Assembly (NCBI RefSeq): GCF_023078375.1
Contig: NZ_CP095555.1
Location: 248,001 to 312,000, forward strand
DNA: 64,000 bases
Direction of reading: 5' to 3'
From: Roseomonas gilardii subsp. gilardii
GTDB lineage: Bacteria > Pseudomonadota > Alphaproteobacteria > Acetobacterales > Acetobacteraceae
This document shows, in pieces, positions 53,272 through 64,000 of this stretch (its first letter is position 1; each line of letters starts with the position of its first letter). Under the pieces are notes generated by a model, which was not told the origin of the DNA, made no database searches, and was given only the letters and a program-made list of their open reading frames with translations. The position numbers were made by a program, and so were the translations under genes.

Positions 53272-54672
53272 CTAACCCCCGGACTCCGCCCGGTCGTCCC
53301 GGAGATGACGGTCGATCCGGATCTCCAGCTTCTTCATGCGGTGCCAGAAGCTGCGCTCGCTGATGCCCAGCCGCTCGGCCGCGCGTGCCTGCACGCCCCC
53401 CGATTGCCGCAGCGCCTCCAGCACCATCTCCCGCTCCAGCCGGAACAGCTCGGCATCGAGATCCCCTGGCAGCCGCGTGGCGGTGGCAGGCGGCACCCGG
53501 GCCTCGAAGAGATAGCGCGGCAGGTCCGGCAGATCGATGATCTCCCCGCGTGCCACGATCACCGCCCGCTCCACGCAGTTCTGCAGCTCCCGCACATTGC
53601 CGGGCCAGTCATAGCTTTCCATGGCTGCCAGCGCCGCCGGGCTGAAGCCGGCAATGCGCTTGCCCATCGAGGCGGCGTGCTGTTGCAGGAAACGCTGCGC
53701 GAGCAGCGGCACGTCGCCGGTCCTCTGGTTCAGGGGTGGCACATGGATGGGGAAGACATTCAGGCGGTAAAACAGGTCCTCGCGGAACTGGCCAGCTTCC
53801 ACCGCGCGCCGCAGGTCCCGATGCGTTGCGGCGACGATGCGCACATCCACCTTGACCGTCCGCGCGCTGCCGACCGGTTCGAAGCACTGCTCCTGGATCG
53901 CGCGCAGCAGCTTCGCCTGGATGGCGAGCGGCATGTCGCCGATCTCGTCCAGGAACAGGGTGCCCTGATGCGCCATGGTGAAGCGGCCGTCGCGATTGGC
54001 GATGGCCCCGGTGAAGGCGCCTTTCACATGCCCGAACAACTCGCTTTCCAGCAGCGTCTCGGGGATCGCCGCACAGTTCACCGCGACGAAGCCGCGCTTG
54101 CGCCGGTCGCTGTTGTAGTGGACGGCGCGGGCGAAAAGCTCCTTGCCCGTGCCGCTCGGTCCCTGCAGCAGCACCGTGGCGCGGCTTCCGCAGACCTCGG
54201 CGATCTGTTGCAGCGCCTGCTGGAAGACCGGGCTGTGGCCGACCAGGTTGGAGAAGTCATAGCGCCCCTCCAGCTCCTGCCGCAGGCGCTGGTTCTCGCT
54301 CTCCACCTGCTGCACATGCAGGGCGCGCTGGATGGTGGTCACCACCTCGTCGAGGTCGAAGGGCTTGGCGACGTAGTCGAAGGCGCCTTCCTTCACCAGC
54401 TCCACCGCGTCGCGCACGCTGGCATAGGCCGTCATCACCACGACGGGCAGGAGGGGATGCTCGGTCCTCAGACGCCGCAGCAATTCCTGCCCGGAAAGCC
54501 CTGGCATCCGCAGATCCGTCAGCACGAGGTCCACGCGCTGCGTGGCCATATGCCCGATGGCCGCCTCGGCGGAGCAGACAAAGGCCGTCTCGAAGCCGCG
54601 CCCCTCCAGCCCGACGGCCAGCACCTCCGCGAGCCTCGCCTCGTCGTCAACGATCAGGATGGAGGAGGCCAT
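53272..54672 (-). CDS. NtrC-family sigma-54-dependent response regulator
   Basis: The 466-residue activator has a receiver domain (acidic pocket at Asp9-Asp10, phospho-acceptor Asp53, Lys103 in AKPF). An AAA+ domain follows with Walker A GPSGTGKE (171-178), GAFTGA (218-223), the sigma-54 contact loop, and LFLDEIGDMP. A Fis-type HTH is at the C-terminus (QARAAERLGISERSFWHRMK). An intact GAFTGA predicts true sigma-54 activation. It is the last gene of the minus-strand operon and overlaps the kinase by 26 bases. The sigma-54 promoters at 60361-60376 and perhaps 60621-60637 are its probable targets. Confidence 0.93.
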   Translation of the reverse strand: MASSILIVDDEARLAEVLAVGLEGRGFETAFVCSAEAAIGHMATQRVDLVLTDLRMPGLSGQELLRRLRTEHPLLPVVVMTAYASVRDAVELVKEGAFDYVAKPFDLDEVVTTIQRALHVQQVESENQRLRQELEGRYDFSNLVGHSPVFQQALQQIAEVCGSRATVLLQGPSGTGKELFARAVHYNSDRRKRGFVAVNCAAIPETLLESELFGHVKGAFTGAIANRDGRFTMAHQGTLFLDEIGDMPLAIQAKLLRAIQEQCFEPVGSARTVKVDVRIVAATHRDLRRAVEAGQFREDLFYRLNVFPIHVPPLNQRTGDVPLLAQRFLQQHAASMGKRIAGFSPAALAAMESYDWPGNVRELQNCVERAVIVARGEIIDLPDLPRYLFEARVPPATATRLPGDLDAELFRLEREMVLEALRQSGGVQARAAERLGISERSFWHRMKKLEIRIDRHLRDDRAESGG

Positions 54673-56461
54673 CGCCCTTCTCCTCGGCGAAAGGGAAGTG
54701 GAAGACGAAGCGGGCCCCGCCCTCGATCCGGTTCCCGGCCTCGATGCGGCCGCCATGCCTTTCCACCACGGCACGCACCCGGGCCAGGCCCAGGCCGGTG
54801 CCATGCAGCTTGCTGGTCACGAAGGGGTCGAAGAGCCGCTCCATGATCCCCGGGGCGATGCCCTTGCCCGTATCCTCCACGCTGGCCAGCACGGCCGAGG
54901 CCTCCCGCGACACCCGGATGGTGATCTCCCCCCTTCCGGCATCGCCTCCATGGCATTGATCAGCACGTTCAGGAAAGCCTGATGCAGCAATTCGGCATCG
55001 CCGACGATCCGGACCGGGGCGGCGGGCTTCAGGGTCACGCAGGTGATGCCCCGGCGACTCAGCTCCGGCTCGGCGAAATCGGCCACCCCGGCGATCACGT
55101 CTTCCGCCAGGTCCAGCACCTGCAGGCGGAGGGCACGCGGGCGCGCATAGTCGATCAGGTCCTGCACGAGATGATCGATGCGCTTCACCTCATCCAGCAC
55201 GAAATCCAGCAGCCGACCGGTCCCCGGCGAAAGCTCGTCGCGGCTCCTGATGACCTGGCTGGAGGTCTTGATGATGCCCAGGGGGTTGCGGATCTCGTGC
55301 GCGATGGTGGTGGCCGCCTCGCCGAGCGTGGCCAGCGTCTCCCGCCGCCGCATCTCCGCCTCCATGCTCCGCAACCGCTCCAGCTGTTCCGTCATGGCGT
55401 TGAAGCCTCCCGCCAGCTCCGCCAGCTCGCCGACCCCGCTTTCCCGGACCCTGGCCGCATAGTTGCCGCTCGCCACCTGCCGCAGCCCGGCGGTGAGGTC
55501 GCGGACCGGACGCGAGATGCGGGCGGACACGACGAGCCCCACCGCGAAGGAAAGCAGCCCGGCACAAAGCGACAGGGTGACGAAGAGCTGCAAGCTGCCC
55601 CAGATGCGACAGGACCGGCGTGTTGCTGACCAGGCGGGTGGCGATGATCCCCACCAGCGCCCCCTGGCGGTCGCGCAGCGCCGCGAAGCCGGTGGCCATG
55701 GCATCCTCCGGCAGGGCCAGGGCGGAAACGCTCTGCTCTCCGGCCCGCAGCCGGGCGAGGACCTGGGGCGGCACCGCGAAGCCGGGTTGGCCCTCGTGCT
55801 TCGAGAAGCTCAGCGCCGGGCTGCCCGTGGCGCCGAAATAGCTGACCTGCAGCGAGGAGATGGTCTGCGCGGCGGCGATCAGCCGGTCGTTCACCTTGTC
55901 TGCCACGAAGGCGATATAGGGCCGCCCCTGGAACAGCAGCCGGTGGGCGGCACCGAGCAGCAGCACGGGCGTGCCGCCGGCCATGGTCATGTAGAAGCCG
56001 GCCTCGTCCTGCCGGGGCAGCCAGCCGGCATCGCCGGACAGGCCCTGGCTCATCACCACATGGCCTTCCGGATCATAGAGGGCGACCAGGTCATAGCCGG
56101 TGGAGACCAGCAGATCGGCGGAGAAACTGGCCAGCATGCCTTCCAGCGTCGGCGCATGGGTCAGGCTGTTGGCGAAGATGGCGGTGGCCAGCCGCGCCTC
56201 CTCCTCCGCCTCCAGAAGCTGCCGCGCGATCAGCCGCGCGGCATCATTCAGCCAGCGCTCATGACTGCGCTCGAAGCGCGTGGAGATCATCTCCGCCGCG
56301 ACATAGCTCGCCAGCAGCACGGGGATCACGCTGACCAGCATGAAGGCGAAGGTCAACTGCCAGCGCAGCCCGGCCTTCGGGAAAACCGCATCCCGGAACC
56401 GGTCCCATGGGCGCGGCCAGAAGCCAGCTCCTGGATTCCTCCTTTTCCAGGCAGACAGCAT
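54647..56461 (-). pseudogene. Sensor histidine kinase, two compensating frameshifts
   Basis: This should be the partner of the sigma-54 regulator. The N-terminal frame has a membrane helix (LTFAFMLVSVIPVLLASYVA), a large periplasmic Cache-like sensor, then breaks at a C4 run (55598-55601). The middle frame has a second helix, HAMP, and HisKA (LGEAATTIAHEIRNPLGIIK). It breaks at a C6 run (54928-54933), and the ATPase end (VEDTGKGIAP, GTGLGLARV) lies in a third frame. One base seems inserted at the first site and one lost at the second, so the 1815-base span stays a multiple of three (604 residues). Start could also be GTG 56482. Confidence 0.85.
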
Positions 56462-62983: not shown

Positions 62984-64000
62984 CTCTCCCCACCCCCGGC
63001 TCCCCCGCTGGCGGGAACTGCCGCCGACCGCCGGCCTGCCGCTGCTCTGGCGCGACCTGCGCCCGGGCGGCGACGCGAAGGAGATGGAGGTGGCGCTGGC
63101 GGATTTCCTCGGCGTGGAGGAGACGCTGCTCACCTGCTCCGGCACGGCGGCGCTGATGGTGGCGTTGCGGACGCTGATGGCGCTCAGCCCGCGGCGGCGC
63201 GTGGTGGTGCCGGGCTTCACCTGCCCGCTGGTGGCCATCGCCATTCATGCGCTGGGGCTGGAGGTCTGCCCCTGCGACACGCTCCCCGGTACGGCGGAGC
63301 TGGACCCCGCCAGCCTGGCGCCGCTCTGCGACGGGAACCTGCTGGCGGTGCTGCCCACCCATCTCGCCGGCCGGGTGGCCGCTCTGGACGCGGTGCTGGC
63401 CCTGGCAGAGGGATGTGGCGCCTGGGTGATCGAGGATGCCGCTCAGGCGCTCGGGGCAAGGGCAGGGGGCCTGCCGGTCGGACTGAGGGGGCATATCGGC
63501 TTCTTCAGCCTGGCGGTCGGCAAGGGTCTGACGCTCTATGAGGGCGGCGTGCTGGTCAGCCGCGATCCGGCGCTGCGCCAGGGGCTGCGGGACAGCGCCA
63601 CCGCCATGCTGCGCCCCGACCGGTGGATGGAGGCCCGGCGCGGCCTGGAACTGCTGGGCTACGGGCTGCTCTACCATCCGCTGGGCCTGACCATGGCCTA
63701 TGGCCGGGGCCTGCGCCGCTCCCTGGGCGCCGGCGACATCGAGGCCGCGCTCGGCGACCGCTTTCCGACCGAGGTGCCGCTGCACCGTGTCGGCTCCTGG
63801 CGCCGGGCGGTGGGGCGCCGCGCCCTGGAACGGCTGCCGGCCTTCCTGGCGGCGACCCGGCGGCAAGGGCAGGACTTCGCCGCCCGGCTGGCCTCGTGCC
63901 CCGGCCTGCGGGTGCTGCGGGACCGCGCGGGGGAGCAGGGCACCTGGCCCGTCCTGGTGCTGGTGTTCGACCGTGCCCGGGATGCCGAGGCCGCGCTGGC
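62886..64000 (+). CDS. DegT/DnrJ/EryC1 aminotransferase, 3' end beyond the window
   Basis: The open frame runs to the window edge (about 371 codons). Motifs include LTCSGTAALMVALRTLMAL, VVPGFTCPLVAIAIHALGLE, VIEDAAQALGA and the PLP lysine region FSLAVGKGLTLYEGGV. These enzymes transaminate nucleotide or lipid-linked keto sugars, or in a subgroup other keto intermediates. The only in-frame ATG is 62886, which overlaps the previous gene by 98 bases. The conserved part begins at about 63008 (PRWRELPP), so the first 40 codons may be untranslated or a non-ATG start may be used. Confidence 0.82.
   Translation, partial: MSPGPKRRLPPRLCRSGAGYRPGRRFPAPCRDDSPHPRLPRWRELPPTAGLPLLWRDLRPGGDAKEMEVALADFLGVEETLLTCSGTAALMVALRTLMALSPRRRVVVPGFTCPLVAIAIHALGLEVCPCDTLPGTAELDPASLAPLCDGNLLAVLPTHLAGRVAALDAVLALAEGCGAWVIEDAAQALGARAGGLPVGLRGHIGFFSLAVGKGLTLYEGGVLVSRDPALRQGLRDSATAMLRPDRWMEARRGLELLGYGLLYHPLGLTMAYGRGLRRSLGAGDIEAALGDRFPTEVPLHRVGSWRRAVGRRALERLPAFLAATRRQGQDFAARLASCPGLRVLRDRAGEQGTWPVLVLVFDRARDAEAAL

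What the first reader, a model, noticed from the sequence alone, without database searches (positions are those of the whole stretch)
53272..64000. Self-regulated sigma-54 cluster for an unknown amino-modified, exported product
Ten genes diverge from one 409-bp region. Leftward: HAD-IB phosphatase, arginase-fold enzyme, alpha/beta hydrolase, FemAB/GNAT-like acyltransferase, sensor kinase and NtrC-type activator. Rightward: class III aminotransferase, two ArnE/F-like half-transporters, DegT aminotransferase. Two aminotransferases, an amine acyltransferase and a flippase-like pair match the logic of the arn pathway (ArnB, ArnE/F) but with different enzymes. I infer a lipid-linked or envelope amine made and flipped under two-component sigma-54 control. 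I do not know a described system with this set.
Basis: partly seen in the sequence, partly recalled or inferred. Interest (0 to 1): 0.85.

Follow-up and report, generated by a model that had tools for sequence, protein, structure and literature searches.

The report
Sigma-54-controlled pathway for an unknown aminolipid
A block of about ten genes, shared by this Roseomonas bacterium and many other proteobacteria, looks like a self-switched assembly line that builds an amine-bearing lipid of unknown structure and moves it across the membrane.

Summary
The window lies on a 423-kb contig of a Roseomonas mucosa relative. Six genes run left and four right from a 409-bp gap; the last (DegT) ends at 64226, outside the window. 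The sensor kinase lies in three frames in this assembly but in one in R. mucosa.

The set is conserved: of 72 untruncated loci found through the arginase-fold gene alone, 70 carry all five core enzymes and 68 also both half-transporters. Self-regulation is well supported by comparison: 62 of 62 loci with their own NtrC-type activator have a sigma-54 promoter before the first gene and 52 of 62 a shared palindrome, against 0 of 11 loci without it. This genome has one such palindrome.

The Arn analogy holds for logic, not membership: Arn models score far below cut-off and no glycosyltransferase is present. Desaturase, cyclopropane synthase, dedicated ACP and ketosynthase, and Dev/Lol-type exporters in sister clusters point to an N-acylated amino lipid. 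The arginase-fold protein keeps the metal ligands but not arginase's substrate motifs.

Product, signal and phenotype are unknown. Seven literature searches aimed at the set found no description.

The parts
53272..54672 (-). NtrC-type sigma-54 activator (receiver, AAA+, Fis-type HTH)
54653..56341 (-). Sensor histidine kinase (HAMP, HisKA), in three pieces in changing frames in this assembly
56493..57725 (-). GNAT/FemAB-like N-acyltransferase (PF13480; PF04339 in relatives)
57694..58572 (-). Alpha/beta hydrolase with GLSMG motif
58569..59621 (-). Arginase-fold protein with metal ligands kept and arginase substrate motifs lost
59614..60324 (-). HAD-IB phosphatase, MtnX-like subfamily
60362..60376 (-). 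Sigma-54 -24/-12 element TGGCACGCGCCTTGC towards the HAD gene
60463..60481 (.). Palindrome AGCTACAAATTTTGTAGCT, probable activator site
60622..60637 (+). Sigma-54 -24/-12 element TGGAACGGCGCCTGCA towards the aminotransferase gene
60734..62077 (+). Class III aminotransferase, GSAM-like subfamily
62172..62522 (+). EamA-type half-transporter 1
62522..62983 (+). EamA-type half-transporter 2
63084..64000 (+). DegT/DnrJ/EryC1 aminotransferase; continues to 64226 on the contig

Best explanation
A dedicated pathway that makes an N-acylated amino lipid and moves it to the outer side of the inner membrane. Shown by comparison of sequences: the cluster's NtrC-type activator goes together with a palindrome in the central gap and with sigma-54 promoters for the leftward arm and, in divergent loci, for the aminotransferase arm; five enzymes and a pair of EamA half-transporters form a conserved unit. 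Inferred: the kinase senses an envelope signal; the class III aminotransferase and the HAD phosphatase turn a phosphorylated keto compound into an amino alcohol (an order like SerC then SerB); the GNAT/FemAB enzyme N-acylates it; the arginase-fold enzyme and the alpha/beta hydrolase cut an amide, amidine or ester in an intermediate; the EamA pair flips the lipid, and in some relatives a Dev/Lol-type ABC line with HlyD and an outer-membrane factor carries it on. DegT would add a second amine in Roseomonas.
For: Gene set: 70 of 72 loci with all five enzymes, 68 of 72 with both half-transporters too. Regulation: sigma-54 element in 62 of 62 loci with their own NtrC and 0 of 11 without it; palindrome at up to 5 mismatches in 52 of 62 against 0 of 11; control stretches outside the site 35 and 4 of 1740, both together 0. 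One palindrome in the own genome; rpoN encoded. Lipid: desaturase and cyclopropane fatty acid synthase inside four Rhizobiales plasmid operons (families checked on one); ACP and ketosynthase in sister clusters with the Cys, first His and ACP Ser kept in 6 of 6 read; DevC-like permeases in 3 of 3 scanned and DevA/LolD-like ATPases in 3 of 3 scanned; EptA and diacylglycerol kinase beside one A. fabrum cluster.
Against: No enzyme was assayed and no product or phenotype is known. Lipid-chain genes are missing from the window and from most loci (desaturase 15 of 72, cyclopropane synthase 9 of 72). EamA proteins also carry soluble metabolites (recalled). EptA stands beside one of the four Rhizobiales clusters read. 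The GNAT profile has no convincing solved relative by sequence and its fold was not obtained. The window's own kinase is broken in this assembly. In Pseudomonas the divergent MipA arm has no sigma-54 element at the score used, 0 of 27.
Confidence: 0.55

Rival explanations
1. A secreted small molecule, such as an N-acyl amine signal, surfactant or metal-binding compound, is made and exported; the acyl chain serves the product and not the membrane.
For: Sister clusters carry tripartite export (HlyD, ABC, TolC) and an ABC of the cyclic-peptide exporter family; ACP plus ketosynthase.
Against: Most loci have only the EamA pair and no outer-membrane export gene; MipA-type outer-membrane proteins in 57 of 72 loci and EptA nearby in one fit an envelope role.
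Confidence: 0.22
2. An Arn-like route: an amino sugar on undecaprenyl phosphate is made, N-acylated, flipped by the EamA pair and put on lipid A.
For: Two aminotransferases and a half-transporter pair; weak ArnE/ArnF similarity; DegT matches sugar aminotransferase models weakly; one PMT-family gene elsewhere in the genome.
Against: All Arn equivalog scores far below cut-off; no glycosyltransferase or sugar-nucleotide enzyme among the cluster genes; DegT absent from 65 of 72 loci.
Confidence: 0.12
3. A catabolic or detoxifying unit for amines or guanidines: the arginase-fold enzyme cleaves a guanidino compound and the EamA pair exports the product, under an NtrC-type nitrogen signal.
For: Arginase fold and metal ligands; NtrC-type control; EamA/SMR-like transporters.
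Against: Arginase substrate motifs lost; acyltransferase, desaturase, cyclopropane synthase, ACP and ketosynthase are unexplained; OmpR-type regulators replace NtrC in Rhizobiales plasmids.
Confidence: 0.07

Closest known systems
Arn (L-Ara4N) pathway: ArnB, ArnE/ArnF
   Same: Aminotransferase plus a pair of small EamA-type half-transporters under two-component control (Arn features recalled)
   Different: Model scores far below cut-offs; no glycosyltransferase or sugar-nucleotide gene among the cluster genes; control by sigma-54
Caulobacter ceramide/phosphosphingolipid cluster (Spt, CerS, CerR, AcpR)
   Same: Cytoplasmic N-acyltransferase and a specialised ACP for an amino lipid; a DesA-family enzyme hydroxylates the acyl chain (passages of PMC11324152, and PMC11087976)
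   Different: No serine palmitoyltransferase-type gene in the cluster; class III and DegT aminotransferases, HAD phosphatase and arginase-fold enzyme instead. Whether CerS and this GNAT are related was not tested
Ureohydrolases (arginase, agmatinase, guanidinase)
   Different: 12-19% identity; SGNLHG loop and ELNP glutamate of the genome's own arginase have no counterpart
DevBCA/LolCDE/MacAB-type lipid and metabolite exporters
   Same: In sister loci the permease matches DevC and the ATPase DevA or LolD best
   Different: All below model cut-offs, and absent from the window

Membership tests
Sigma-54-dependent NtrC-family activator | Receiver, sigma-54 interaction domain with GAFTGA, Fis-type HTH | tested here: met
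   Pfam matches over cut-off; GAFTGA conserved in 61 aligned rows
Sigma-54-dependent operon with its own enhancer site | -24/-12 element plus upstream palindrome that go with the activator | tested here: met
   62 of 62 and 52 of 62 against 0 of 11 and 0 of 11; expression not testable here
Arn pathway | ArnE/ArnF equivalog cut-offs | tested here: not met
   28.6 of 92 and 31.1 of 99 bits
Arn pathway | ArnB equivalog cut-off for DegT | tested here: not met
   66.3 of 631 bits
Arn pathway | Glycosyltransferase and sugar-nucleotide enzymes in the cluster | tested here: not met
   No such Pfam match in the cluster proteins; the rest of the genome was searched only for PF02366 (one match)
Ureohydrolase (arginase) fold | Arginase fold | tested here: met
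Ureohydrolase (arginase) function | Binuclear metal ligands | tested here: met
   H, D.H.D and D.D positions invariant in 33 rows, lined up with solved members and the own arginase
Ureohydrolase (arginase) function | Substrate motifs SGNLHG and E of ELNP | tested here: not met
   the roles of these residues are recalled, and the column of the Glu is inferred from neighbouring residues
Glutamate-1-semialdehyde aminomutase HemL | TIGR00713 equivalog cut-off | tested here: not met
   440.9 of 527.3 bits; subfamily NF000818 passed at 461.2 of 398
MtnX phosphatase | TIGR03333 equivalog cut-off | tested here: not met
   74.5 of 303.2 bits; subfamily TIGR01489 passed at 84.5 of 81.55
Bacterial sphingolipid pathway | Serine palmitoyltransferase-type enzyme in the cluster | tested here: not met
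   The class I/II profile PF00155 matches only the class III enzyme (23.7 bits) and DegT (20.3 bits), far below their own families; the rest of the genome was not searched
Lipid N-acyltransferase of the GNAT type | Long-chain acyl donor and lipid amine acceptor | not testable with these tools
   Needs an assay; family PF13480 only, fold not obtained

The most novel reading that the evidence does not exclude
The cluster makes an undescribed class of proteobacterial membrane lipid: an N-acyl amino alcohol built without serine palmitoyltransferase or sugar nucleotides, finished by a repurposed arginase-fold hydrolase, moved by an EamA heterodimer with or without a Dev/Lol-type line, and switched on by a private sigma-54 two-component circuit that travels with it across alpha- and gammaproteobacteria.
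Probability: 0.35. Interest if true: 0.85.

Novelty: new variant of a known kind. Interest (0 to 1): 0.66.

Why it matters
The set is common, for example its arginase-fold gene is in 36 of 199 Pseudomonas genomes, yet no product is known to me or was found in print. If it is a lipid, a membrane component has been overlooked in well-studied soil and plant bacteria and in a human skin commensal. The layout makes it directly testable: one palindrome, one regulator, one operon, with counterparts in laboratory pseudomonads and Azospirillum. It also offers a new subfamily of the arginase fold with lost arginase motifs.

Tried and rejected
Literature: 10 searches ran. Seven were aimed at the gene set, its logic or the host's lipids: five listed nothing, one search listed five papers that do not bear on it by title and abstract start, one search listed one Pf-5 paper whose passages do not mention the cluster. 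Searches were on sphingolipids and R. mucosa colistin. Most subscription papers and all bioRxiv preprints are not held, so 'not in print' is only as wide as these searches.

Deacetylase reading of the arginase-fold protein: the 50 rows shown in each are ureohydrolases and related amidino, formimino or metformin hydrolases. Deacetylases are not among those rows, which does not exclude them.

Undecaprenyl-diphosphate phosphatase as a part: beside DegT in the window's contig and in two R. mucosa loci only, so left out. Sigma-70 scan: 0 found, 0.4 expected; terminators 0 found, 2.9 expected. Rfam and tRNA scans of the window empty. A Pseudomonas GNAT has no match in phage records.

Regulation counts: a first count gave 64 of 65 and 54 of 65, but its NtrC rule let in loci whose match came from another NtrC-type gene nearby, and L007 and L009 repeat L017 and L025. 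The recount drops these two, leaving 83 loci: 62 with own NtrC over 400 bits, one with a cut-off NtrC (L071, both elements present), 11 without NtrC and at least 9 kb of room, 9 with less room. Of these 9, four have both elements (L008, L029, L076, L092; the pieces end before the place of NtrC) and five neither (L040, L049, L056, L058, L070). Ten of the 62 have more than 5 mismatches to the palindrome word. Genome-wide, the backwards control pattern at up to 3 mismatches scores as often as the palindrome (one control match; 1, 1, 1, 3, 2 and 6), so single weak matches mean nothing; Humitalea's genome G018, with a 4-mismatch site, gave none. Palindrome-to-promoter spacing looks helically phased on 16 distinct values (p 0.0036 for 10.5 bp), but the loci are related, the values come from the set, and 11 bp fits slightly better; little weight given.

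Pseudomonas and Bosea are over-represented. In one search, L007-L009 and the window were left out and 15 of 87 loci set aside as truncated; thresholds were low for the short half-transporters (40 bits). L041 has an arginase-fold relative without the other genes.
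Full report
What is there. The window is G000:C2:248001-312000, on a 423,563-base contig of a 4.6-Mb genome. The arginase-fold protein is 82-88% identical in two same-genus genomes and ten Roseomonas plasmid records, so this is a relative of Roseomonas mucosa. Genes were named with Pfam and NCBIfam. A 409-bp gap separates a leftward arm (HAD-IB phosphatase, arginase-fold protein, alpha/beta hydrolase, GNAT/FemAB-like protein, kinase, NtrC-type activator) from a rightward arm (class III aminotransferase, two EamA half-transporters, DegT). 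R. mucosa has the same order in both arms. DegT ends at 64226, beyond the window.

The kinase. The R. mucosa kinase, 564 aa in one frame, matches the window in three pieces in changing frames. Assembly error or real loss cannot be told apart here. If real, the window's own circuit would be impaired; the argument for the family does not depend on it.

Conservation. One scan of named genome contigs with an eight-row alignment of the arginase-fold protein gave 519 confirmed relatives, of which the best 80 were kept; seven plasmid regions were added. Of 72 loci with at least 7 kb on both sides, 72 hold GNAT, HAD and alpha/beta hydrolase, 70 the aminotransferase and 70 each half-transporter; 70 hold all five enzymes, 68 also both half-transporters, 58 also kinase and NtrC. 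MipA-type proteins accompany 57, desaturase 15, cyclopropane synthase 9, DegT 7. Two aminotransferase subfamilies fill the same slot: a GSAM-like one in Roseomonas, Azospirillum, Aureimonas and Labrys, and a longer class III type in Rhizobium, Bosea and Pseudomonas. In an even draw of 398 phylum genomes 16, the window's own included, have a relative; six match at E below 1e-130 and ten only at 1e-34 to 1e-50. In 199 Pseudomonas genomes 36 have it; of 14 other genomes of the window's genus, 2. So the set is widespread but patchy. A GNAT tree of 63 rows puts the window with R. mucosa and then with other Roseomonadaceae and Azospirillaceae; Pseudomonas falls near Rhizobiales plasmid and Vineibacter loci with modest support (90/92).

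Regulation. The gap holds the palindrome AGCTACAAATTTTGTAGCT at 60463-60481, TGGCACGCGCCTTGC on the minus strand at 60362-60376 and TGGAACGGCGCCTGCA on the plus strand at 60622-60637. In 91 loci scanned there are 60 palindrome matches at up to 4 mismatches, and none in one letter-shuffle of each. In 83 distinct loci with sequence before the HAD gene, 62 of 62 with their own NtrC have a sigma-54 element scoring 17.5 or more, and 52 the palindrome at up to 5 mismatches (57 at up to 6); of 11 without NtrC and with room, none has either. Stretches outside the site give 35 and 4 of 1740, never both. The aminotransferase side has its own element in 15 of 15 loci with a divergent GSAM-type neighbour and in both Labrys loci, where a desaturase gene comes first; 0 of 27 divergent MipA genes have one. 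The own genome has one palindrome place at up to 3 mismatches. In six other genomes the cluster site is found in five, with one further weak place in G404; the backwards control gives similar numbers of weak matches, so this shows only that there is no large regulon of close copies. RpoN is encoded. The activator's HTH and GAFTGA motif are conserved from Roseomonas to Pseudomonas. I take self-regulation as well supported by comparison; no expression was measured.

Sister clusters tell more about the product. Rhizobium, Agrobacterium and Phyllobacterium plasmids carry the core on one strand with a fatty acid desaturase and a cyclopropane fatty acid synthase inside, OmpR-type regulators before it, and a MipA-type protein after it in three of four by annotation. 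Families were checked on Rhizobium NZLR1; its regulator is best matched by QseB and PmrA models, below cut-off. In A. fabrum strain 2788 a phosphoethanolamine-lipid A transferase and a diacylglycerol kinase follow. Xanthomonas sacchari has HAD, aminotransferase, ketosynthase, ACP, GNAT, arginase-fold protein, DegT, two EamA, alpha/beta hydrolase, HlyD, ABC ATPase, TolC, kinase and regulator in one region, on both strands. Chelatococcus (L036) and Ancylobacter vacuolatus (L053) lack the EamA pair within the locus; both have a DevC-like permease and a DevA- or LolD-like ATPase, below cut-off. The six ketosynthases read keep the Cys and first His; the six ACPs read keep the Ser. A Bartonella plasmid has only aminotransferase, FemAB-like and arginase-fold genes, beside MBOAT and SGNH genes.

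Mechanism and its status. Shown by comparison: the regulatory layout and the conserved unit. Inferred from families: amine formation by aminotransferase and HAD phosphatase, N-acylation by GNAT, flipping by the EamA pair, onward export in some relatives. A dedicated ACP and a cytoplasmic N-acyltransferase have a precedent in Caulobacter sphingolipid synthesis (passages of PMC11324152 and PMC11087976). Unknown: headgroup, acyl chain, role of the alpha/beta hydrolase, inducing signal. R. mucosa has high colistin MICs (MIC50/90 16 mg/L; passage of PMC12959163), which may have nothing to do with this cluster.

Comparison with known systems. As logic it resembles Arn: aminotransferase, half-transporter pair, two-component control. 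As membership it fails each Arn feature tested. Seven literature searches aimed at it gave no description. I rate it a new variant of a known kind: an envelope-lipid type pathway, product unknown, with private sigma-54 control.

Noticed in passing
54653-56341: Sensor kinase in three pieces in changing frames, in one frame in R. mucosa (L010); assembly error or real loss not decided.
   Followed up: partly
13974-16297 and 37387-41096: Pairs of long overlapping ORFs in different frames suggest that frame breaks are not confined to the kinase.
   Followed up: no
L004 4240-5079 (64239-65078 in window numbering): Undecaprenyl-diphosphate phosphatase gene convergent with DegT, also in R. mucosa but matched in no other locus scanned.
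   Followed up: partly
L014 7292-10796: In Azospirillum sp. B510 the cluster sits beside genes that look like phosphonate degradation (by eye and recall, no family search).
   Followed up: no
L049 and L063: Xanthobacter aminoxidans carries two versions of the cluster, one next to ketosynthase and ABC export genes, one with its own NtrC.
   Followed up: partly
L041 10025-10978: An arginase-fold relative in a Bradyrhizobiaceae MAG without the other cluster genes in the locus.
   Followed up: no
59614-60324, L012, L124: The three HAD phosphatases read share a CKC stretch before the GDGRSDFC motif, perhaps a metal site.
   Followed up: no
47862-51399: Lyase-like and two amidohydrolase-like genes in a row near the cluster; named by eye only.
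   Followed up: no
L126 7776-8585: A Bacteroidota 'arginase family protein' of 25% identity sits among sugar-metabolism genes without the cluster.
   Followed up: no
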